This document shows, piece after piece, positions 24,416 through 38,780 of a stretch of 64,000 nt of DNA. Every line of letters begins with the position of its first letter. The stretch's first letter is position 1. The DNA is taken from positions 1 to 64,000 of the forward strand of contig NZ_SRRY01000002.1 of the NCBI RefSeq assembly GCF_004792295.1, written 5' to 3'. Source of the DNA: Pseudoalteromonas sp. MEBiC 03607 (GTDB lineage Bacteria; Pseudomonadota; Gammaproteobacteria; Enterobacterales; Alteromonadaceae). The position numbers and the translations under genes were made by a program. The notes under the pieces were generated by a model. The model had not been told where the DNA came from, searched no databases, and saw nothing but the letters and a program-made list of their open reading frames with translations.

Positions 24416-25393
24416 TTAAATTTCATTAAAGTATAAGACAATTGCAGCACCATCTAGGCTGCTACCGTTATGGATGTTGATGCCAATACCAAAATTGTTG
24501 AACCAAGAGGTCCAGCGCTGTGCATCCCATAAAAAGCCTATACCATACTCATAAAAATGGTCAGTTCCGAATGCAACTCGACTATCACCACCTAAGTCGA
24601 TACGTTGTCCTTTGATATAAAATGCTTGCTCAAATGGTCCAATCTTAAACATGTTAAACGTTGCTTTAATACCATTTAGTGTTCGCCAAGTTTCAGGGGC
24701 TGCATTATGTATACCGTCAGGGTGAGAGAGTGCCCAGCCATAGTAATAATTAAAGTTAAGCTTATATTCGTAATAGCCCCAATATCTAGGCAGGCGATAA
24801 ATCATGGTTGCATTAGGGTTTAACACCAGTGCATTGCTATTAAGATTGGTGTAAAGGTTATCAGTTAAAGGCTTTAAATTACGCCTAGACTCGGGAGAGT
24901 TGTAGTCGTAATCATTGTTGTAATGTAAGTAGTGAGTATTCAAACCAAATTGATATGACCACTTAGAGCCAAGAGCTTTTTCTGCGTTAAAGCCGAGCAT
25001 TCCGTTATACACAGTTTCAGAAATATAGTCGTCAGCTACATTATCAAACAGCGAAATGAAATCTGACTGATTTAGGTAGCTGATCCGACTTACTACATTA
25101 ATGTTGTGTTGGTAGATAGGGTTATTTACCTGCCATTTAAGCGGAATGCTGTAGAGTTTTAACTTCTTTCTCAGTGCTATGCTGTCTTCTTCATTGACAG
25201 TATTTTGTGGGTTAAATATGGTTTGAGGATCAAAATCACCAAATCCTAAAGTAATGCTGTCACCATCAGTTAAAACCAATGAGGTGGCAAATGCTGATTC
25301 AAGTTGTTTCGTTGGATTTGCATCACTGTATGAGCAGTAGATCAAAGCCCATACTGTGCACAGAGTAAAAACCTTTTTAATTCGGTTATTCAT
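24416..25393 (-). CDS. Outer-membrane beta-barrel, solitary autotransporter-barrel-like
   Basis: A 325-residue exported protein if translation starts at the ATG at 25393, which gives a standard signal peptide (MNNRIKKVFTLCTVWALIYC, cleavage near SYSDA). Two earlier ATGs (25414, 25438) are possible and no start has a good ribosome binding site. The rest consists of amphipathic strands rich in Tyr, Trp and Asn. The C-terminal part (HFYEYGIGFLWDAQRW, NNFGIGINIHNGSSLDGA, IVLYFNEI) resembles the solitary outer-membrane autotransporter beta-barrel family (Omp_AT) as I remember it. There is no passenger domain. Function unknown. Confidence 0.7.
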   Translation of the reverse strand: MNNRIKKVFTLCTVWALIYCSYSDANPTKQLESAFATSLVLTDGDSITLGFGDFDPQTIFNPQNTVNEEDSIALRKKLKLYSIPLKWQVNNPIYQHNINVVSRISYLNQSDFISLFDNVADDYISETVYNGMLGFNAEKALGSKWSYQFGLNTHYLHYNNDYDYNSPESRRNLKPLTDNLYTNLNSNALVLNPNATMIYRLPRYWGYYEYKLNFNYYYGWALSHPDGIHNAAPETWRTLNGIKATFNMFKIGPFEQAFYIKGQRIDLGGDSRVAFGTDHFYEYGIGFLWDAQRWTSWFNNFGIGINIHNGSSLDGAAIVLYFNEI

Positions 25394-25620
25394 CAAAACT
25401 TTAAATCTCATATAAAAGCATTGTAAATTCAGTGGCATGAATCTTGTTGTGTTGGTACCTAATTGGTATCCATATCATATAAAACCCCTCCCTCGGAACT
25501 AGTAACAAAGGGTGTCGGAATTTTCACAAACTCACCTTGAATCAGAATTTTCTCATTCGAACTCGTAATATTTTAATCTAATGTAAATGGTATGTACAAA
25601 GTGGATGTTCGTAATTAACA

Positions 25621-26340
25621 GTGGATACGTTGCAATTAGATTCAATCTGTTCAAGAGGCCCCACTTTGAATGCTTCATATTTTAATGCTAGTTCAAATGG
25701 CTTTGTTTTTAAGCTTGCTACATTCATCCTATTTGCTGGTTCTTTATTTTGCAGTCAACAGGGCAAAGCTGAGCAAACAGGCTGGTTTTTATCAGGACAA
25801 ATAGGTTCAGCTTCAACAGACCTCAGCAAAAAGAACCTAACGTCATCATTAATTGAACAAGGAGCCTTAATTAACTCTGTGTCGATTAAGGACTCAGATA
25901 CAGGTTATCAAGCTGCAATTGGTTATAAATTCAATTCGTTCTACTCACTGCAAGTTGGTTATGTAGATTTTGGCGAAAGACATTTCAGCTTTACTGGTGA
26001 AGTCAGCGACATAGACAGCTTACACAGTACCATGGAACAAATTTACCCAGAATCAGCAAAGGGGCCGCAAATATCACTTTTAGCATCGTGGCCTGTTACC
26101 AAAGAGATATCACTGACTGGTAAGTTGGGGTATTTAGATTGGCAACAAGATTACCAATACCAAATAGACTCTTCACAGCTATTTAATGCAAAACGAAGTG
26201 GCAACAGTGTCACCTTTGGCATTGAAGCAAGTATTGCTGTTTTTAAAAGTACTCAAGTTTTTATTAGTTACGACCATGCAGCGCTGGATGCAACTGATGC
26301 TTCGATGCTCTCTATTGGCGCAAGATATTACTTCGACTAA
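25621..26340 (+). CDS. Small OmpA/OmpW-like outer-membrane beta-barrel protein
   Basis: A 239-residue protein if the GTG at 25621 is used. The N-terminal 30 residues before the hydrophobic stretch FVFKLATFILFAGSLFC are unusually long for a signal peptide, so the true start may be a TTG or other codon downstream. The mature part begins near AEQTGWFLSGQIG and shows eight amphipathic strands (GYQAAIGYKFN, SLQVGYVDFG, SLTGKLGYLDWQ, VFISYDHAALD) ending in SIGARYYFD with a C-terminal aromatic residue. This fits the eight-stranded OMP_b-brl fold. The giant surface protein begins 122 bases later on the same strand; a functional link is possible but not shown. Confidence 0.75.
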   Translation: MDTLQLDSICSRGPTLNASYFNASSNGFVFKLATFILFAGSLFCSQQGKAEQTGWFLSGQIGSASTDLSKKNLTSSLIEQGALINSVSIKDSDTGYQAAIGYKFNSFYSLQVGYVDFGERHFSFTGEVSDIDSLHSTMEQIYPESAKGPQISLLASWPVTKEISLTGKLGYLDWQQDYQYQIDSSQLFNAKRSGNSVTFGIEASIAVFKSTQVFISYDHAALDATDASMLSIGARYYFD

Positions 26341-26462: not shown

Positions 26463-29400
26463 ATGCTATCAACAATTATCAAATACCTATACCTAATAGC
26501 GCTTATTGCGCCTATGTCTATACTGGCTATGCCAATAACAATCATTACACCGAACGAGACTTTCACACTCGATGTTGAGCCAAGTGACAGCATTGATACG
26601 GTAAAAGGCCTTGTTGAGCAGCAGACGAGTATTGCGCAAGCTCGGCAGATTATCACCTTTAATGGTCAAACATTAGAAAATGGTCGGTCATTGTCTGATT
26701 ATAATGTGCAAAAAAATTCAATATTAAATGTAACTAAATCGAATGTAGCGCCTAGCTTGAGTGTTAGCGCCTGGGAATCATTAGGCAGTACTAGGTTTGC
26801 TGGGTCATCTAACAGTGGGAACCATTCAAGAATTAGACTGGATGCTAACGATGTGCCATGGGTAATTTTCGCTGATACATCAGAGCATAATGGTAGCGTC
26901 ATGAAGTTCAATGGCACAGATTGGGAATATGTTGGAAATAAAAATATTGCAAATGGTGACATTTATTACACAGATATCATTTTTGATAGTAATAACACCC
27001 CATACATTTCTTTTGCAGATGAAGGTAACTCAGGCAGGTTAAGAGTGTTGAGTTTTAATGGGAGTAATTGGAATGATGTAGGCTCACTTATATCGAGCGG
27101 CTTAGGTTTTTACTCTAATTTAGCATTTGATAATAATGGTGTTTTACATGTTGTTTATAATGATAGTAACTTCAGCAATAAAGCTGTTTTAAAAAAGTAT
27201 AATGGTGCTAATTGGGTAAGGGTGGGTGTTGAAGGGTTTTCACTAGCAAAAGCAGCCTACACTGATCTTGCTTTTGATAGTACAAATACGCCTTACGTTT
27301 CATTTAGAGACTTTTCTTTAGATTCCACTAGTGCTTCAGTTATGTCGTTTGATGGCTCATCTTGGGAATATGTCGGCAAAGCCGGTGTTTCAAATGTCGA
27401 AGGAAATTACACGAATATAGCAATTGACAGCAAGGACAATATATTATTGAGCACTAAAACCGAAATTAGCCGACTTACAAAGAGACTTTCACTTTATAAA
27501 TTTGATGGTACAAGCTGGACTATACTCCACGAAGATATCACTGGTGACGCAGTATTTTCTCCCGACTTTGTATTGGGAAAGAACGATATACCCTTTATAT
27601 TTGTTACAGACTATGGAGTTGATCCAAACAGAGGGAGTGTCGTAACTTATCAAAATAACTCTTGGCAGTTTGTTGGAGCTAGGGGATTTAGCGAAGCTTT
27701 CACTGACTTTAATCGTATAGCTCTTGATAGCCAAAACACACCTTATGTTTTTTATGCCGATGGTAATTCATTGGCACAAGGCACGGTAAAAAAATATACT
27801 TCAACATCTTTCTCAGATTCTTCTCAATCTATTAATCAAGGGATATCAATAGGAAACCCGTTTCAAGATGTAAAAGTTTCTGATAATGATGATGATAATG
27901 TTCTACTTACAATTTCACTTTCGGATACTGTCGCAGGTGACTTTTCAGGTAGTGCTAGTGGAAATGCAGTGTATAGCTATGATGCAAATTCAGGTGTATT
28001 AACAATATCTGGAAGTGCCAGTGATGTAAATGCCACTATTGATAACTTAACCTTTTCTCTGGACAGTAACTACATTGGTGAATTTACATTCACCACCGAA
28101 CTTACTGATGGCACTGAAAGTGTAACGCCTGTCCTTTTAACTTATTCAGTAAATGCAATAAACCAAGCTCCTTCTATTGCGATTAATACAGGACTTTCAA
28201 TTAATGAAGGCGATTCAAAAGTTATTACTAATAGTTTGTTATCTGCAAAAGATAGTGATGACTCTGGGACAGGGTTAACATATACGCTTAAATCAGTACC
28301 TACGAATGGTAGTTTGTTTGTCGATGCTAATGATAATGGTAGTTTAGACTCAGGTGAGGGACTTGCTGTGAATGGCACGTTTACCCAGCAAACACTTGAT
28401 GATTCAAAGCTTTATTATAAGCATGATGGTAGTGAAACTACGTCAGATAGTTTTAATTTTGACTTAGCTGATGGAGGAGAAGACTCTGTCGAACCAATTA
28501 CAAATCAAGTCTTTAGTATCACAGTCATCCCAGTTAATGATCTACCCGTCATTGAATCTGAACCTGTTAAAGTTGTGCAAGTTGGTCAGTTATATACATA
28601 TAAAATTATAGCCACTGATGCAGACAATGATGCGATAACGATTATCGTTTCTTTCGGCGATACATTTCCTAGTTGGCTCTCTTATAGTGCCGTAACGAGA
28701 ACTATAACAGGTCTCCCAGAACAAACGGATATTGGCACTTACCCTATCACGATTCATGTACTTGAAAATGGAGTTGAAAAACTTAAACAAGAATATTCTT
28801 TAAGTGTAACTCGCAAGAACGAGGCGCCTGTTATTACTTCCTCTGCACAGATATGGGCAACTGAAGACACTGAATATTTATATTCAGTTAAGGCAAGTGA
28901 TGCGGATATAGGTGATACCCTTACATTTAGTGCAATTGGTTTACCTAGTTGGCTAACAATTGATTCAAAAACTGGCGTTTTATCAGGCACACCAACAAAT
29001 GATGATGTTGGCACGCATTATGTTGCCGTTGTTGTAGCAGATTCTTTAAATGCATCGGACAGACAGGATTTTGTTATTAGTGTTGCTAATGTTAATGATA
29101 AACCAACTATCACATCTACTCCTGTCGCAACAGCAACAGAGGGCGAGCTCTATAGTTATAAGTTTACTGCAGTAGATGTTGATCCTGGTGATTCGATCAC
29201 ATACTCAGGTTTAAATCTGCCTTCTTGGTTAACCTTTGATAGTGTCAGCCAAGTCTTAAGTGGTACTCCCACAAACGAAAATGTTGGGAAACATGCGATT
29301 ACCTTGCTTGCTGTTGATTCAAAGAATGAAGCAAGTACTCAGAAATTTACGCTGACAGTTTTGAATGTTAATGATGCGCCTGTCAGCCAAAATGATACAG

Positions 29401-32400
29401 CTAGTGTTGATGAAGATAACATTGTTGCGATAAATGTCTTAGAGAATGACACTGATGTCGATAGTCAACTGAACCCTGCTAGTGTGATGGTTGTCACACC
29501 CCCAGAGCATGGTAAAACGAGTCTAAATACAGCAACGGGGGTAATTACCTATACCCCGAATAAGGACTACAACGGCAAAGATAGTTTTACTTATACTGTA
29601 GAGGATATGGAAGCCAGTCGTTCGAATACTTCAATTGTCTCGATAACTATCAATGCAGTGAATGATGCTCCGATTGCTCTAGGTGATGAGATCACAACAG
29701 ACGAAGACATGGCGGTCGAAATCGATGTGGTGGCAAACGATAAAGATATTGATAGTAATGATGCAATTGATCTATCAACTCTCGAAGTCGTTACATTGCC
29801 TGAAAATGGGGATGCCAAAGTAAGTAATGAACTGATCATATATACACCAAAAGCCAACTTTAGTGGCAGCGATTCGTTTACATATCGTATTGCTGATAAA
29901 GCAGGGGCATTTTCTAAAAGTGCCACTGTGCTGATCACTATTGGTGAGATTAATGACGCACCGGTTGCAAGCGCTGATACGTTTGAGTTAAACGAAGATA
30001 TCCCTACGATACTTTCTATTTTAGATAATGACGTCGATGTTGACAGTGAGTTATTGGTAAAAAATGTAACAGTTACAAAAGATCCAAGTCATGGTGTTTT
30101 AAATATTGATAGTGAATCAGGACAAATCACCTACACGCCACAAAGTAACTATTTTGGTAGTGATGGCTTTAGCTATGCGGTTAAAGATGAACAATCTCTT
30201 ATGTCAAATATTGCACCTGTTAACTTAACTATTAAAAGCATAAACGATGCTCCAATAGCTAACAATGATACAGCCGTGATTTTGGAAGACACACTTCATA
30301 ATATCAATGTGTTAGGAAACGATTCTGATGTTGATGGTAGTCTAGATGAAAGCAGTATTGAAGTTGTGAACGCCCCACTTCAAGGTATTGCTATCGCGTC
30401 TCAGGGAGTTATAAGTTACACACCTAATGCCAATAGCAATGGCGAGGATACGTTTACCTATCGGGTAAAAGATGATCTAGGTGAATGGTCAAACGCAGCA
30501 CGCGTGTCATTAACGGTCACACCTGTAAATGATGCACCGTTAGCTAACAATGATACTGTGCAAATAAATGAAGATGAATCAATAGTGATAAATGTGATTA
30601 TCAATGATGATGACGTAGATGGCAGCATTGATGTTTCTTCACTGCAAATCGTGAATTCTCCTTCTTTCGGGCAGGTTGTGAACAATGCAGATGGTACGTT
30701 TGCTTATACACCTACTAGTAACTATGTAGGAATCGATTCATTCAGTTATACCCTTTTTGATAACGAAGGTGCTAAATCCAATATTGCTTCAGTGACTATT
30801 ACCATCTTGCCTGTAAATGATGCGCCTGTTATTGAATCGGCAGCGTTAACTTCTGCGACACAAGATGAGTTTTATAGTTATACATTAGTTATCAATGATG
30901 TAGACAGTGCTGATAGCTATAAGTTGAGTGCCCCAGAACTGCCAAGTTGGCTTAATTTTAATCTTGCAACAGGTGAGCTAAGTGGTACACCCACTAATGA
31001 TGATGTGGGCACTCATGCTGTTACTTTATTAGTAACTGATGCCGAAGGATTAACTGATACACAAACCTTTGTTATCACAGTTGCCGATGTTAACGATGAA
31101 GCAACCGGTGGTATTAGTATCAGTGGCGAGGCTAAACAAGGTCAAACCTTGCGTGTTGAGTCAACCATTGAAGACCCTGATGGCGTAGGTGAATTTACCT
31201 ATCAATGGATGCGCAATGGGGTATTAATTTCAGGTGCAACACTATCGGAGTACATGCTAACCGATGCTGATATCGGCGCGACGATAACGGTTGTAGTAAC
31301 CTATGTTGATGGCAACGGTAATACTGAGACCTTTACATCGGGTGCAACCAGCCCTGTTATTATTGCAAACACTGCGCCTGTGGCTAACGGTGAACAACTT
31401 AGCACAAATGAAGACGAGAGCATCACCTTTACACTCAGCTATTTTGATGAAAATGGCGATGATCTGACATTCAACCTTGTGACACCGGTTAGTAATGGTA
31501 CGTTAACGATGGATGCTAATAGTTTCACGTACCAGCCTAATGCTGACTTTTACGGTACTGACAGTTTTAGTTATCAAGTATCAGATGGAAAAGTAAGTTC
31601 AGAGCTTGCCACCGTTACTATCATAGTAAATCCAGTAAGTGATGCACCTATCTCTGTGCCGGATAGCTTTACGATTAATACTGACTTAAATGAGTTTGTG
31701 ATTTTAGACGTGCTGGCAAATGATCGTGATGCAGATGGCGATGAGTTAACTATTCTCAATGCTACAGCCAGTGCAGGTGTTGTCCGGATTGTTGATAATA
31801 AGCTTGAGTATCTCGCACCTGTTGGAATGATTGGTGAAGTTGTAATCACTTATCAAATTAGAGATAGCAGTGGTGAAATAACCGAAGTGACTTTAGTTGT
31901 TTCGTTAGTCTCAACATCACAGAACATTACAATTACAGCGCCAGATGACAGAACAATTGCATCTGAGGGGTTATTCACAAAAGTAAACATGGGAACGGCG
32001 ATTGCACTTGATTCTTTAGGTAATCCAGTGCGAGTAACAGCTAGCTCTAAAGGATTTTTTGCATCAGGTACCCATACCGTTGTGTGGACTGCTGGTGAAG
32101 GCAGTGACCAAGTCTCGGCAACTCAGCTGATCCATGTTGTACCCCAAGTCAACTTTAGTAAAGACCAAACAGCTACAGAAGGGACAACAGTGACGATTAA
32201 AGCCATTCTCAATGGTGATGCAGTAAGTTACCCTGTTATTGTTCCATACTCAGTGTCAGGCGATGCAACACAAGGGCTTGACCATGACTTAGTGGATGGA
32301 GAGTTTGTCTTTAACGAAGGACAGCGAGAGGCGCAACTTATTGTAAATTTAGCACAAGATGAGTTTGAAGAAGGCAGCGAAACAGTCGTAGTTAGCCTGT

Positions 32401-34073
32401 CTGATCCACAAAGTGCTGTAATTGGTCCTTTAGGTACACATACATTGACTATTGCAGAGGGTAATGTCGCACCAAGCGTACAATTATTTGCAAGTCAAAA
32501 CGGCCTTACTACACGAATAATAGATAAGCATGCTGGTGAAGTGACGATTAGTGCATTAGTGATCGATGCAAACTTAGCTGATACCCATACTTATGATTGG
32601 AGTGTGTCGAGCGACAGTATTGTAGATATCGATCAGATTGACGATCAATTTAGCTTTGACCCTAGCAATGTGGAAAATGGTACTTATCAATTTACCATTG
32701 TTGCCAGTGATGGTGATAAAACAGGCTCAATGAAATTAGAATTAACAATTTTAGAGTCTGCACCTTTACTCACTTCAGAAGATACCGATTTTGACGGCAT
32801 TAGTGACCTACAAGAAGGTTATGGTGACAGTGATAATGACGGTATTCCTGATTATATCGATTCAGTCTCTTTGGCGAAAAATGTGTTGCAAGAGAAGTTC
32901 AACGAAAGTGAGTTTTTCTTAATGGAAACAGAGCCAGGCTTGCAGCTTAGCCTAGGACATGTTGCCTTTGTTGCACATGGTACGCAAACGGGGATTACTG
33001 GAGAAGAAGTTGAGCAATTCGCAAGTAACAGTCAAAACAACGTTGTTGATGCAAGCTTTAACTATGAAAATGGTGTATTTGACTTCAATGTGACTGATAT
33101 ACCAGTGCCAGGGCAATCTGTGAGTATTGTTATGGCGCAATTTTCTCCGGTTCCGAGCAATGCGGTTTATCGCAAGTTGATGCCTACAGGTTGGACTGAG
33201 TTTGTCGTAGATAGTAAGAATAGTATCGCTTCAGCACCGGGTGTTGAGGGGTTCTGCCCACCACCTCGTGATGCACAATATGAAGAAGGCTTAAAAGAAG
33301 GCTACTGGTGTGTGCAATTGACTATCGAAGATGGTGGTCCTAATGATGCGGATGGACTAGTCAATCGTGCAATCGAAGACCCAAGTGGTTTAGCAACGTT
33401 AGCCGGCACAAATACTAAACCTGATGCGCAAAACGATACTGTAATGGTTAAACGTAATACAGCTGCTTATCTTGATGTGTTATCAAATGATAGTGATGCT
33501 GATGGTGACTCATTGACCTTAACATCTGCCTCAGTTGATATTGGCCAAGTTAGTATTGCTAATAATCAATTGTATTTCACTCCACAAGCAGAGCATCTAG
33601 GAACGGCAAGCATTACCTATGGAATCTCTGATGGTCAAGGTGGTTCAAGCTACGCTAAGGTAAATGTTGATGTTGTTGAAAATGAAGCACCAAGTATTTC
33701 TCTCATCGTGGATGTAAGCACTGAGGATCAAAACCCAGTAACTGTAGACGTTTTAGCAAATGTGTCAGATGAAGATAATAATTCATTCATTATTATTTTC
33801 GCATCGGCAAATAATGGTACGGTCATTATCAATGCTGATAACACCTTAACCTATACACCAAACGTTGGTTTTGAAGGGATCGATACGGTGACATTTACAG
33901 TATCAGACGGTGATGGTGGTACTGTTGAGGGGCAATTTAATGTTTTAGTGAACTCTAAAAAACGGGTAACTGTTGAGAGTAAAACACGTGGAGGTTCATT
34001 ACCTCTAGGTTTAATTGTTTATCTCTTCTTATATACGCTTTATAGACGTTACTCGCAAAAAGTACGCCGTTAA
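26463..34073 (+). CDS. Giant secreted surface protein: ubiquitin-like domain, beta-propeller, cadherin/Ig repeats, GlyGly-CTERM
   Basis: A 2536-residue exported protein. The ATG at 26463 has an AGGA site 10 bases upstream; an upstream in-frame TTG was rejected. Order of parts: signal peptide (1-22, ending SILA); ubiquitin-like domain (23-92); seven propeller-like repeats (about 104-450); a cadherin-like stretch; four He_PIG-type domains marked by PSWL; about nine VCBS/cadherin-like repeats marked by NDAP and DVLANDxDxD; a Calx-beta-like segment (about 1896-2000, ATEGTTVTI); an acidic TSP3-like calcium segment near 2107 (TDFDGISDL, GDSDNDGIPDY); and a C-terminal Gly2510-Gly2511, hydrophobic segment and RRYSQKVRR tail (GlyGly-CTERM). 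This suggests a calcium-stabilised adhesive or enzyme-inhibiting surface fibre released by type II secretion and rhombosortase. No catalytic domain was recognised. Confidence 0.92.
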   Translation: MLSTIIKYLYLIALIAPMSILAMPITIITPNETFTLDVEPSDSIDTVKGLVEQQTSIAQARQIITFNGQTLENGRSLSDYNVQKNSILNVTKSNVAPSLSVSAWESLGSTRFAGSSNSGNHSRIRLDANDVPWVIFADTSEHNGSVMKFNGTDWEYVGNKNIANGDIYYTDIIFDSNNTPYISFADEGNSGRLRVLSFNGSNWNDVGSLISSGLGFYSNLAFDNNGVLHVVYNDSNFSNKAVLKKYNGANWVRVGVEGFSLAKAAYTDLAFDSTNTPYVSFRDFSLDSTSASVMSFDGSSWEYVGKAGVSNVEGNYTNIAIDSKDNILLSTKTEISRLTKRLSLYKFDGTSWTILHEDITGDAVFSPDFVLGKNDIPFIFVTDYGVDPNRGSVVTYQNNSWQFVGARGFSEAFTDFNRIALDSQNTPYVFYADGNSLAQGTVKKYTSTSFSDSSQSINQGISIGNPFQDVKVSDNDDDNVLLTISLSDTVAGDFSGSASGNAVYSYDANSGVLTISGSASDVNATIDNLTFSLDSNYIGEFTFTTELTDGTESVTPVLLTYSVNAINQAPSIAINTGLSINEGDSKVITNSLLSAKDSDDSGTGLTYTLKSVPTNGSLFVDANDNGSLDSGEGLAVNGTFTQQTLDDSKLYYKHDGSETTSDSFNFDLADGGEDSVEPITNQVFSITVIPVNDLPVIESEPVKVVQVGQLYTYKIIATDADNDAITIIVSFGDTFPSWLSYSAVTRTITGLPEQTDIGTYPITIHVLENGVEKLKQEYSLSVTRKNEAPVITSSAQIWATEDTEYLYSVKASDADIGDTLTFSAIGLPSWLTIDSKTGVLSGTPTNDDVGTHYVAVVVADSLNASDRQDFVISVANVNDKPTITSTPVATATEGELYSYKFTAVDVDPGDSITYSGLNLPSWLTFDSVSQVLSGTPTNENVGKHAITLLAVDSKNEASTQKFTLTVLNVNDAPVSQNDTASVDEDNIVAINVLENDTDVDSQLNPASVMVVTPPEHGKTSLNTATGVITYTPNKDYNGKDSFTYTVEDMEASRSNTSIVSITINAVNDAPIALGDEITTDEDMAVEIDVVANDKDIDSNDAIDLSTLEVVTLPENGDAKVSNELIIYTPKANFSGSDSFTYRIADKAGAFSKSATVLITIGEINDAPVASADTFELNEDIPTILSILDNDVDVDSELLVKNVTVTKDPSHGVLNIDSESGQITYTPQSNYFGSDGFSYAVKDEQSLMSNIAPVNLTIKSINDAPIANNDTAVILEDTLHNINVLGNDSDVDGSLDESSIEVVNAPLQGIAIASQGVISYTPNANSNGEDTFTYRVKDDLGEWSNAARVSLTVTPVNDAPLANNDTVQINEDESIVINVIINDDDVDGSIDVSSLQIVNSPSFGQVVNNADGTFAYTPTSNYVGIDSFSYTLFDNEGAKSNIASVTITILPVNDAPVIESAALTSATQDEFYSYTLVINDVDSADSYKLSAPELPSWLNFNLATGELSGTPTNDDVGTHAVTLLVTDAEGLTDTQTFVITVADVNDEATGGISISGEAKQGQTLRVESTIEDPDGVGEFTYQWMRNGVLISGATLSEYMLTDADIGATITVVVTYVDGNGNTETFTSGATSPVIIANTAPVANGEQLSTNEDESITFTLSYFDENGDDLTFNLVTPVSNGTLTMDANSFTYQPNADFYGTDSFSYQVSDGKVSSELATVTIIVNPVSDAPISVPDSFTINTDLNEFVILDVLANDRDADGDELTILNATASAGVVRIVDNKLEYLAPVGMIGEVVITYQIRDSSGEITEVTLVVSLVSTSQNITITAPDDRTIASEGLFTKVNMGTAIALDSLGNPVRVTASSKGFFASGTHTVVWTAGEGSDQVSATQLIHVVPQVNFSKDQTATEGTTVTIKAILNGDAVSYPVIVPYSVSGDATQGLDHDLVDGEFVFNEGQREAQLIVNLAQDEFEEGSETVVVSLSDPQSAVIGPLGTHTLTIAEGNVAPSVQLFASQNGLTTRIIDKHAGEVTISALVIDANLADTHTYDWSVSSDSIVDIDQIDDQFSFDPSNVENGTYQFTIVASDGDKTGSMKLELTILESAPLLTSEDTDFDGISDLQEGYGDSDNDGIPDYIDSVSLAKNVLQEKFNESEFFLMETEPGLQLSLGHVAFVAHGTQTGITGEEVEQFASNSQNNVVDASFNYENGVFDFNVTDIPVPGQSVSIVMAQFSPVPSNAVYRKLMPTGWTEFVVDSKNSIASAPGVEGFCPPPRDAQYEEGLKEGYWCVQLTIEDGGPNDADGLVNRAIEDPSGLATLAGTNTKPDAQNDTVMVKRNTAAYLDVLSNDSDADGDSLTLTSASVDIGQVSIANNQLYFTPQAEHLGTASITYGISDGQGGSSYAKVNVDVVENEAPSISLIVDVSTEDQNPVTVDVLANVSDEDNNSFIIIFASANNGTVIINADNTLTYTPNVGFEGIDTVTFTVSDGDGGTVEGQFNVLVNSKKRVTVESKTRGGSLPLGLIVYLFLYTLYRRYSQKVRR
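26529..26738 (+). other. Ubiquitin-like domain at the mature N-terminus of the giant surface protein
   Basis: Residues 23-92, directly after the predicted signal-peptide cleavage. Hand alignment with eukaryotic ubiquitin from Ub12 to Ub69 needs no gap and gives 28 identities in 58 positions, including TLxVEPSD, FxGxxLExGR and LSDYNxQKxSxL. The first strand also aligns (MPITIITP for MQIFVKTLT) with one residue less in the turn. Core hydrophobic positions are kept. Lys27 and Lys63 equivalents are present; Lys48 is Gln, Ile44 is Thr and the C-terminal RLRGG is replaced by TKSNVAPS, so it cannot be conjugated as ubiquitin is. Confidence 0.85.
26772..27825 (+). other. Seven-repeat probable beta-propeller within the giant surface protein
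   Basis: Seven units of about 46-50 residues share the pattern Y-T-x-hydrophobic-A-F-D-S-x-N-T-P-Y-V-x-F-x-D, then a hydrophobic strand and F-N-G-x-x-W-x-x-V-G. The best units start near YTDIIFDSNNTPYISF and YTDLAFDSTNTPYVSF; the fifth and sixth are degenerate. Seven such four-strand units fit a seven-bladed propeller. Confidence 0.65.
33990..34070 (+). other. GlyGly-CTERM sorting signal of the giant surface protein
   Basis: The C-terminal 27 residues consist of Gly-Gly-Ser, a hydrophobic segment (LPLGLIVYLFLYTLY) and a basic cluster (RRYSQKVRR). This matches the GlyGly-CTERM class recognised by rhombosortase, known in Shewanella, Vibrio and relatives and linked to type II secretion. Confidence 0.8.
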
Positions 34074-37499: not shown

Positions 37500-38780
37500 A
37501 TGATAGATAAGGCATTATTAGCAAAAACACGCGAGTTATCTGACCGATTAATCGCACTGCAAACACCCATTCGTATCCTTGATGCGATCAACTGGGATAA
37601 ACAAATCAAAGAAGAGTTTTTTAAGCATAAATGCCAGAAAAACCCAACAGTTGATCAAGCATATTACCAACAGCGTGACCTTGGTTTTGTACCAAGCGAA
37701 CTGCGCCGTGCGTTTTCTGATTTAAATCGCGATATCATCAGCCAATTAGGGCAACTGAACCCGATTGCGCAATACATGAGCAAGATGTGTACTGAATATA
37801 AAACCGTACTTAGTATGATTGAGTATCGTGGTACCCCTGAATTTCATGATCTGTCTGTAGAGCTGTTCGGTCATCCTAAAGATTTATTCCATGCTGGAGA
37901 GCCGTCACTTTCAGAGCTTGCAACTATGCTTGAGCAGCCACTAAAGAGTATGCTTGATGCCGATATCTTGCCTGATGATCCAAAAAATATCGATGCAGAA
38001 GATGCGGTGAAAATTCTAGCAGCTCAAGTGTCTCAAACGATGCCAGGCATTGATGTTGAGGTCATTCTGAGTGATGGTATCGTCAGTGATGCCGCAGCTG
38101 GTGCAAATAATATTAAACTTAATCAAGATGTTAAGTTCTCTCAGCGTGAGCTTGATATTCTTGAAGTGCATGAAGGCTGGATCCATGTGGGTACGACGCA
38201 AAACGGTCTTGCTCAGCCATATTTAACCTGTTTAAGTAAAGGCACACCGAGCTCTACCGTCACCCAAGAAGGCCTTGCGGTGTTGACCGAAATTATTACC
38301 TTAAAGTCGACGCCACGACGTTTAGCAAAGTTAGTTAATCGTATTCAAGGTATTACCAAGGTCATTGATGGCGCTGAGTTCGTTGATATTTATCGTGACT
38401 ATGTAGCGCAAGGTTTGAGTAAAGACGACAGCTATACACTCACACAACGAGTGTTTAGAGGCAGTACAGCAACAGGCTTACCTTTTACCAAAGATATCGC
38501 CTATATCAAAGGTTTCGTGTTGGTGTATAACCTTATACGAGTTGCCATTCAGTTAGGTCGAATTGATCAATTGCACTTGTTATTGGTTGGTAAAATTTCA
38601 ATTGATGATTTCAGACTGATATCACAATTACATGATTTAGGTGTGATTGAAGACCCTAAGTTTATTCCGCCACACTTTAAAGACTTACGAGGCCTAGCAA
38701 CATGGCTAAGCTTTGGCCGTTTTATTGGTAACTTGTCGTTTGAGCAATTAGAAAACGATTACAAACCACTCTTTATTTAA
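37500..38780 (+). CDS. MATCAP/DUF1704 family metallocarboxypeptidase homologue (QEGLA motif protein)
   Basis: A 426-residue cytoplasmic protein. It carries the zinc-peptidase-like motif HEGWIH at residues 224-229 (HExxxH) and the QEGLA motif at 256-260, whose Glu would be the third metal ligand. These are the family's catalytic motifs: eukaryotic MATCAP proteins (KIAA0895L), shown in 2022 to remove the C-terminal tyrosine of tubulin, have HEIGTH and a matching EEGLA. Bacterial members are usually annotated as flavohemoglobin expression-modulating QEGLA motif proteins. They have no tubulin, so the target is unknown. The start lacks a good ribosome binding site; the first ATG is used. It follows a TlpA-like gene on the same strand, possibly sharing a transcript. 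Confidence 0.88.
   Translation: MIDKALLAKTRELSDRLIALQTPIRILDAINWDKQIKEEFFKHKCQKNPTVDQAYYQQRDLGFVPSELRRAFSDLNRDIISQLGQLNPIAQYMSKMCTEYKTVLSMIEYRGTPEFHDLSVELFGHPKDLFHAGEPSLSELATMLEQPLKSMLDADILPDDPKNIDAEDAVKILAAQVSQTMPGIDVEVILSDGIVSDAAAGANNIKLNQDVKFSQRELDILEVHEGWIHVGTTQNGLAQPYLTCLSKGTPSSTVTQEGLAVLTEIITLKSTPRRLAKLVNRIQGITKVIDGAEFVDIYRDYVAQGLSKDDSYTLTQRVFRGSTATGLPFTKDIAYIKGFVLVYNLIRVAIQLGRIDQLHLLLVGKISIDDFRLISQLHDLGVIEDPKFIPPHFKDLRGLATWLSFGRFIGNLSFEQLENDYKPLFI

What the first reader, a model, noticed from the sequence alone, without database searches (positions are those of the whole stretch)
26463..26738. A ubiquitin fold with strong sequence similarity at the N-terminus of a giant bacterial surface protein
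The mature N-terminus, right after the signal peptide, aligns to ubiquitin without gaps over Ub12-69 with 28 of 58 identities. Shared strings include VEPSD and LSDYN. This is far above the similarity of ThiS, MoaD or Pup. The domain keeps the core and Lys27/Lys63, but Ile44 is Thr, Lys48 is Gln and no diglycine end exists. A secreted ubiquitin is known in Bacteroides fragilis, but a ubiquitin-like cap on a cadherin-repeat GlyGly-CTERM protein is not familiar to me. It may come from a eukaryotic source and act as a cap, host-mimicking module or adhesion tip.
Basis: partly seen in the sequence, partly recalled or inferred. Interest (0 to 1): 0.92.

Follow-up and report, generated by a model that had tools for sequence, protein, structure and literature searches.

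The report
Ubiquitin-like cap on bacterial surface proteins
A huge surface protein of a marine bacterium starts with a real ubiquitin-like domain, and the same layout, a ubiquitin placed directly behind the export signal of surface proteins, turns up in many unrelated bacteria although ubiquitin is thought of as a protein of complex cells.

Summary
Window 26463-34073 (+) encodes a 2,536-residue exported protein of a Pseudoalteromonas. Its mature N-terminus (26529-26738) is a ubiquitin-like domain: Pfam PF00240 E 2.6e-15, 28 of 58 ungapped identities against at most 14 in 5,000 shuffles, AlphaFold pLDDT 95.8, 1ubq at 1.0 A. Lys27 and Lys63 are kept; the hydrophobic patch, Lys48 and the diglycine are gone: a ubiquitin-like domain, not a conjugatable ubiquitin. 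Behind it lie a modelled lectin-like beta-propeller and cadherin/Ig repeats. It is not an oddity: one scan of 84,980 species genomes gave 296 relatives. Of the best 80, 67 place ubiquitin directly behind a signal peptide, often on autotransporters or other surface proteins. These are 82-99% identical to human ubiquitin, have host-like codons and low dN/dS, yet only 3 of 68 keep the diglycine. The closest published case I saw is the free secreted ubiquitin of Bacteroides fragilis. I read the window protein as a diverged member of a widespread ubiquitin cap shown at the far tip of surface proteins. What the cap binds is not known.

The parts
26463..26528 (+). signal peptide (residues 1-22), cleavage expected between Ala22 and Met23
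   Evidence: sequence; hydrophobicity rule met. The same rule passes 230 of 6,961 other Met positions in ORFs over 200 codons of the 80 relative loci
26529..26738 (+). ubiquitin-like domain (residues 23-92), beta-grasp, no diglycine
26754..27812 (+). beta-propeller, second domain of the head, lectin- or glycoside-hydrolase-like fold
   Evidence: AlphaFold model of residues 23-486, mean pLDDT 85.4; Foldseek best hits glycoside hydrolase BT3686, LGI1 EPTP, Photorhabdus PLL/PHL lectins
28170..31710 (+). stalk of cadherin-like / Ig-like (tandem-95, He_PIG, Big_9) repeats; limits approximate
   Evidence: Pfam and NCBIfam
32148..32417 (+). Calx-beta domain
   Evidence: PF03160 E 1e-7
33054..33395 (+). 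choice-of-anchor U domain
   Evidence: NF041766 E 1.6e-10
33960..34070 (+). C-terminal tail: Gly-Gly, hydrophobic stretch, basic end; looks like GlyGly-CTERM but is not called by TIGR03501
   Evidence: sequence; TIGR03501 search of the genome; rhombosortase present
25621..26340 (+). neighbouring gene: OmpA-like outer-membrane barrel, probable partner
   Evidence: PF01389 E 1.6e-12. Relatives at 52% identity or more only in the same 3 of 99 Pseudoalteromonas genomes that carry the ubiquitin domain; fused to the giant protein in a Vibrio

Best explanation
The protein is a very large, probably C-terminally anchored surface adhesin. Its membrane-distal head is a ubiquitin-like cap plus a lectin-like beta-propeller, on a stalk of cadherin/Ig repeats. 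Shown: ubiquitin-like domain, its place directly behind a predicted signal peptide, repeat stalk, propeller model, OmpA-like neighbour. Inferred: anchoring at the C-terminus (GlyGly-type tail plus rhombosortase, perhaps held by the OmpA-like barrel), so that the cap is the outermost part. The cap belongs to a widespread set of prokaryotic exported proteins in which a captured ubiquitin stands directly behind a signal peptide and is kept as a non-conjugating N-terminal domain. In the relatives examined the ubiquitin surface is highly conserved, which suggests a non-covalent binding partner. In the Pseudoalteromonas group the cap has diverged (43% to human) and has lost the classical patch, so it probably serves a changed binding role or as a stable end-cap of the adhesin head.
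For: Identity and fold. Place after the signal peptide: 67 of the best 80 relatives (control rate 230 of 6,961). Surface or anchoring modules among 70 proteins scanned: autotransporter beta-domain 21, SLH 5, OMP beta-barrel 4, IPTL-CTERM 4, T9SS tail 2, choice-of-anchor U 6; categories can overlap. Domain kept by selection: window against sister species G012, dN/dS 0.107 in the cap and 0.192 in the rest; of 22 pairs chosen, 13 gave finite non-zero values for both parts and the cap was lower in 13 of 13. Codons match the host gene: GC3 r = 0.91, n = 25. Diglycine kept in 3 of 68 exported proteins but 6 of the 12 without signal peptide. Conserved surface in the 68: K11 68, K63 66, L8 66, K48 65, I44 63, V70 57. 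Partner: OmpA-like gene and ubiquitin domain occur in the same 3 of 99 genomes; fused in Vibrio sp. ES.051.
Against: No function was measured and no binding partner is known. The window domain has lost the hydrophobic patch, so what holds for the wider family need not hold here. TIGR03501 does not call the tail. Signal peptides were judged by a simple rule, not a trained predictor. The trees have 72 columns and are mostly unresolved. The 22 dN/dS pairs were chosen by hand; in 7 the cap and in 1 the rest had saturated synonymous sites, 1 had no downstream part, and some downstream alignments are poor (23-26% identity). Of 70 proteins a large share match none of the listed anchoring modules.
Confidence: 0.6

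Rival explanations
1. The cap is a diffusible or contact-acting weapon against other bacteria, as shown for the free secreted ubiquitin BfUbb of Bacteroides fragilis.
Against: The window cap sits on a protein of some 2,500 residues with adhesin repeats; only 31% identity to 8hm2 in the structural alignment. Many relatives carry anchoring or barrel modules. No toxin family appeared among the 10 nearby genes scanned with Pfam at E 1e-4.
Confidence: 0.15
2. Eukaryote-directed mimicry: the cap binds ubiquitin-recognising proteins of protists or animals (marine hosts, grazers).
For: In the wider family the eukaryotic residue is kept at 91% of positions outside the core on average, with host-like codons and strong purifying selection. 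One strain with the protein is from abalone.
Against: In the window group Leu8, Ile44 and Val70 are all replaced and identity is 43%. No habitat survey was made; record names of the wider family suggest soil, freshwater, marine and rumen sources, which neither support nor exclude contact with eukaryotes.
Confidence: 0.15
3. A purely structural end-cap: ubiquitin folds fast and is protease-resistant (recalled), so it protects the N-terminus of a long surface protein and needs no partner.
For: Directly behind the signal peptide in 67 of 80 relatives, with many unrelated downstream domains. The window cap has drifted on its surface but keeps the fold.
Against: In the 68 exported relatives residues outside the core agree with human ubiquitin at 91%, which a mere cap would not need. 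Three Dyella genomes export the cap alone.
Confidence: 0.25
4. Contamination or chance: eukaryotic sequence in assemblies, or an over-read weak similarity.
For: Of the best 80 loci 12 lack a signal peptide by my rule, and some look eukaryotic (L073 has four tandem ubiquitins); 6 of these 12 keep the diglycine. 47 of the 68 exported relatives are from records labelled MAG.
Against: The window gene lies in an 830-kb contig of a two-contig genome, with relatives in named Pseudoalteromonas strains. 21 of the 68 exported relatives come from records not labelled MAG; in 9 of 9 genomes tested the gene is found in the genome; codon usage follows the host gene.
Confidence: 0.02

Closest known systems
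BfUbb, secreted ubiquitin of Bacteroides fragilis (PMC3352274, PMC5705921; PDB 8hm2)
   Same: bacterial; signal peptide ending exactly before Met1; ubiquitin fold; terminal glycine(s) missing
   Different: BfUbb is a free 76-residue protein with tested antibacterial activity and 63% identity to human ubiquitin (papers); the window cap is the first domain of a 2,536-residue protein and has 43%
Ubiquitin family, Pfam PF00240 / ubiquitin-like domain proteins of eukaryotes
   Same: sequence family and fold; an N-terminal ubiquitin-like domain on a larger protein is a usual eukaryotic layout (recalled)
   Different: exported bacterial protein; no diglycine; hydrophobic patch replaced
Giant repeat proteins with OmpA-like barrel in other Pseudoalteromonas (loci L139-L141)
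   Same: Ig/cadherin-type repeats and GlyGly-type tail by eye, OmpA-like barrel
   Different: no ubiquitin domain in those genomes; barrel is fused at the C-terminus, not a separate upstream gene
Vibrio sp. ES.051 giant Ig-like protein (P0146; locus L012)
   Same: signal peptide, ubiquitin (65% to human), NHL-type and Ig-type repeats (Pfam list of P0146), GlyGly-like tail by eye, barrel homologous to the window's neighbour (28%)
   Different: barrel and OmpA C-terminal domain in the same reading frame; cap much closer to eukaryotic ubiquitin

Membership tests
Ubiquitin-like domain family (PF00240) | sequence score over the curated cut-off | tested here: met
   56.4 bits against 25.4
Ubiquitin-like domain family (PF00240) | beta-grasp fold | tested here: met
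Ubiquitin as a conjugatable modifier | C-terminal diglycine | tested here: not met
   sequence reads LNVTKSNVAP where LHLVLRLRGG is expected; therefore not filed as a ubiquitin modifier
Ubiquitin as a conjugatable modifier | Leu8-Ile44-Val70 patch | tested here: not met
   Pro, Thr, Thr
Ubiquitin as a conjugatable modifier | conjugating enzymes (E2) in the genome | tested here: inconclusive
   PF00179 found nothing in 13 genomes, but it rang in none of the 14 control genomes either
BfUbb-type secreted ubiquitin | signal peptide ending directly before Met1 | tested here: met
   BfUbb as described in PMC5705921
BfUbb-type secreted ubiquitin | free 76-residue protein | tested here: not met
   2,536-residue protein
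BfUbb-type secreted ubiquitin | antagonises related strains | not testable with these tools
   needs growth-inhibition assay
GlyGly-CTERM / rhombosortase substrate | match to TIGR03501 | tested here: not met
   8 matches in the genome, not this gene (1 of 14 control genomes was over the cut-off); tail looks similar
GlyGly-CTERM / rhombosortase substrate | rhombosortase in the genome | tested here: met
   TIGR03902 164.8 bits, over the 84-bit cut-off; all 14 control genomes give weaker matches, none over the cut-off
Bacterial ubiquitin-like defence operons (Bil, CBASS-type; recalled) | E1, E2 or JAB-type peptidase genes next to the ubiquitin-like gene | tested here: not met
   Pfam scan of 10 nearby genes and the upstream gene shows none; the other window genes were not scanned

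The most novel reading that the evidence does not exclude
Prokaryotes have a general, horizontally spread module: a signal peptide joined directly to ubiquitin, which puts a non-conjugating ubiquitin at the outer end of many kinds of surface proteins in several bacterial phyla and perhaps methanogenic archaea. It is kept almost unchanged because its surface binds a partner. The Pseudoalteromonas/Vibrio giant adhesins are diverged members that use the cap as part of an adhesion head.
Probability: 0.5. Interest if true: 0.92.

Novelty: new variant of a known kind. Interest (0 to 1): 0.76.

Why it matters
The 2017 paper on BfUbb calls B. [quoted passage not shown] If exported ubiquitin caps are in fact spread over several bacterial phyla and kept by selection without the diglycine, ubiquitin has a second life as a displayed, non-covalent surface ligand. 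That would be directly testable in cultured bacteria (for example Dyella, Saccharibacillus, Pseudoalteromonas), and would ask what bacteria or grazers recognise on it.

Tried and rejected
Chance similarity: rejected. Contamination: rejected for the window; likely for some of the 12 loci without signal peptide. A protein search with the short Vibrio domain scored 7,972 hits, listed the best 120, mostly eukaryotic polyubiquitins where named, and told nothing about bacterial architectures; 26 of those rows (17 with an organism name) later served as eukaryotic references. One clear single origin of all bacterial caps: neither shown nor excluded; 16 label changes against 26.1 in shuffles, 78 of 99 inner forks open. 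In the second tree two Pseudoalteromonas rows (P0014, P0017) kept only 22% of the columns, so their place says little. Phages as carriers: none in 50,697 phage records; 10 matches over two IMG/VR scans, 9 different contigs; L017/L157, L155 and L161/L162 have signal peptides, but viral contigs may hold host flanks. E2 search: silent in controls, so useless. Cassette exchange: in some pairs the cap has more synonymous change than the rest (L048-L078, L036-L081, L038-L069), in others not; 72 codons are too few to decide. Literature: ten searches of open-licence PMC papers showed no report of ubiquitin caps on bacterial surface proteins in the listed titles and abstract starts; four of them had more papers than were listed, and many subscription papers are not held, so this is no proof of absence. 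PMC11354881 was searched for six terms only.

Full report

How it differs from ubiquitin. Identity to human ubiquitin over positions 1-72 is 43%. Lys27 and Lys63 are kept. Lys6, Lys11, Lys29, Lys33 and Lys48 are not. The patch Leu8-Ile44-Val70 reads Pro-Thr-Thr, and there is no diglycine. So it is a ubiquitin-like domain, not a ubiquitin that can be conjugated.

What surrounds it. The model of residues 23-486 (pLDDT 85.4) shows the cap and then a beta-propeller. Foldseek's best solved matches are glycoside hydrolases of the BT3686 type, LGI1 and the Photorhabdus fucose-binding lectins, at 8-16% identity among the 50 listed, so a ligand-binding propeller is a fair inference and a specific ligand is not. 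Then follow cadherin/Ig repeats, a Calx-beta domain, a choice-of-anchor U domain and a Gly-Gly/hydrophobic/basic tail. The genome has a rhombosortase (164.8 bits; the 14 control genomes give only weaker matches, none over the cut-off). The GlyGly-CTERM model lists 8 other places and not this gene. The gene directly upstream (25621-26340) is an OmpA-like barrel.

Partner gene. In 99 Pseudoalteromonas genomes PF00240 is found in 3. The barrel gives some match in 85 of the 99; relatives at 100, 80 and 52% identity are in the same three genomes, and all other matches are at 30% identity or less. Three of those others were fetched; in each the barrel is the C-terminal end of one giant reading frame, behind a GlyGly-like tail and a second signal-like stretch. 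In the two whose N-terminus could be read there is no ubiquitin (L140, L141); the third, L139, runs off its contig. In Vibrio sp. ES.051 (G439, named through P0146) signal peptide, ubiquitin, repeats, tail and barrel are all in one frame; its barrel matches the window's neighbour with 28% identity, E 4e-28. This links barrel and giant protein functionally; how they join is inference.

How far the giant protein reaches. The first protein search gave 17 hits. One (P0008) is a different, multi-ubiquitin protein. The other 16 share the layout of the window protein; 12 of the 16 carry a PF00240 annotation and 4 (P0015-P0018) do not, although they align over 99-100% of residues 1-100 with 60-61% identity: the cap drifts to the edge of recognition within the group. 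A search with the Vibrio protein gave 17 hits. Six long ones pass the signal-peptide rule directly before ubiquitin (P0147-P0149, P0152-P0154); P0155 has three residues in between. P0146 is the Vibrio protein itself, P0151 is a partial record that starts at Met1, P0150 has its ubiquitin at the C-terminus, and P0139-P0145 carry many ubiquitin-type Pfam domains and were not read.

The wider family. A scan of 84,980 species genomes with an alignment of four bacterial domains matched 384 stretches; 296 encode relatives and the best 80 were kept, ranked by likeness to a near-human sequence. By a simple rule 67 of 80 have a signal peptide whose last residue stands directly before Met1; L081 misses the rule narrowly and I count it too, giving 68; 12 do not qualify. 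The rule passes 230 of 6,961 other Met positions in the same loci. The 68 come from 11 named phyla, two without a phylum; 47 are from records labelled MAG and 21 are not: 14 Pseudomonadota, 5 Bacillota, 1 Actinomycetota and 1 cyanobacterium (Prochlorococcus AG-418-O03, recalled to be a single-cell genome). Archaeal cases are MAGs only (two Methanotrichaceae). In 9 of 9 genomes followed up PF00240 was found, once in 8 and twice in Neptunomonas. In sampled groups the domain is rare: over the cut-off in 3 of 99 Pseudoalteromonas, 3 of 196 genomes of the Vibrio genus, 4 of 394 of the order and 2 of 369 of the class, the last two counts and the first with the window's own genome included.

What the caps sit on. 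Of 70 mature proteins scanned (68 plus window and Vibrio), 21 match the autotransporter beta-domain, 5 SLH, 4 IPTL-CTERM, 4 OMP beta-barrel, 2 the type IX sorting tail and 6 choice-of-anchor U; the groups can overlap, and many proteins match none. From general knowledge these modules hold the C-terminal end at the cell, which leaves the N-terminal cap farthest out; this is inference. Three Dyella genomes export the cap alone.

Selection. The 68 are 82-99% (median 93%) identical to human ubiquitin; agreement is 95% at 17 recalled core positions and 91% elsewhere. GC3 of the cap follows GC3 of the rest of the same gene, r = 0.91 in the 25 of 28 chosen loci with enough downstream sequence, so these are not fresh arrivals. 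In 22 hand-chosen pairs, 13 give finite non-zero dN/dS for cap and rest, and the cap is lower in all 13 (0.02-0.16); 7 are saturated in the cap, 1 only in the rest, and 1 has no downstream part. Yet 65 of 68 have lost the diglycine, while 6 of the 12 loci without signal peptide keep it. Conservation of the surface with loss of the conjugating tail argues for non-covalent recognition in the family at large. The window group is the exception with a changed surface, though still under constraint (window against G012: 0.107 in the cap, 0.192 in the rest).

Origin. A tree of 102 rows is nearly unresolved; bacterial exported rows cluster more than shuffled labels (16 changes against 26.1). In a smaller tree the Pseudoalteromonas rows sit with Vibrio L152 and Neptunomonas L151 at 92/93 and 95/71, not a firm support. 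Together with the intermediate identities of these marine caps to human ubiquitin (74% L152, 72% L151, 67% L153, 65% G439, against 43% in the window) this suggests descent from marine gammaproteobacterial secreted ubiquitins.

What is known. B. fragilis BfUbb is the precedent: secreted, mature at Met1, terminal glycine missing, antagonistic to other strains (PMC5705921: passages including the abstract, and the Discussion section; PMC3352274: passages including the abstract). Ten searches of the open library showed no description of ubiquitin caps on bacterial surface proteins among the papers listed. One plasmid record already names a Ruminococcus albus gene a ubiquitin family protein, so single members are annotated.

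Verdict. The finding is real; the window protein is a diverged member of an under-described class. Function stays open; the adhesin-head reading is the most likely.

Noticed in passing
L139 (G009), L140 (G044), L141 (G034): Pseudoalteromonas giant reading frames end with a GlyGly-like tail, then a second signal-like stretch and an OmpA-like barrel in the same frame, as if one polyprotein were cut into adhesin and barrel.
   Followed up: partly
P0153, P0154: Metagenomic giants with signal peptide, ubiquitin and an OmpA-type barrel annotation, like the Vibrio protein.
   Followed up: partly
L005, L006 (G268, G125; same order, another family): Short ubiquitin-like proteins of about 79 residues without signal peptide, ending LYLVLR and a stop, in two genomes of one genus.
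   Followed up: no
L159, L160 (IMG/VR contigs): Open frames of about 250 codons that start with a diverged ubiquitin-like domain without signal peptide.
   Followed up: no
L017/L157, L155, L161, L162 (IMG/VR contigs): Exported ubiquitin genes on contigs classed as viral: beside terminase- and methylase-like genes (by eye), as free ubiquitin ending RLRGG, or with a PEP-CTERM-like end (by eye). A possible route of spread.
   Followed up: partly
window 37500-38780 (+): Protein of the MATCAP family (named for a microtubule-associated tyrosine carboxypeptidase), E 8.7e-129, in a marine bacterium.
   Followed up: no
window 24416-25438 (-): Solitary outer-membrane autotransporter barrel (Omp_AT), E 2.6e-81, close to the OmpA-like gene.
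   Followed up: no
G860 (Neptunomonas antarctica), L150 and L151: Two different exported ubiquitin genes in one genome.
   Followed up: no
L024, L052, L056, L065, L089: Ubiquitin in prokaryotic records without a recognised signal peptide and without being plain polyubiquitin; L052 and L056 share a similar downstream stretch.
   Followed up: no
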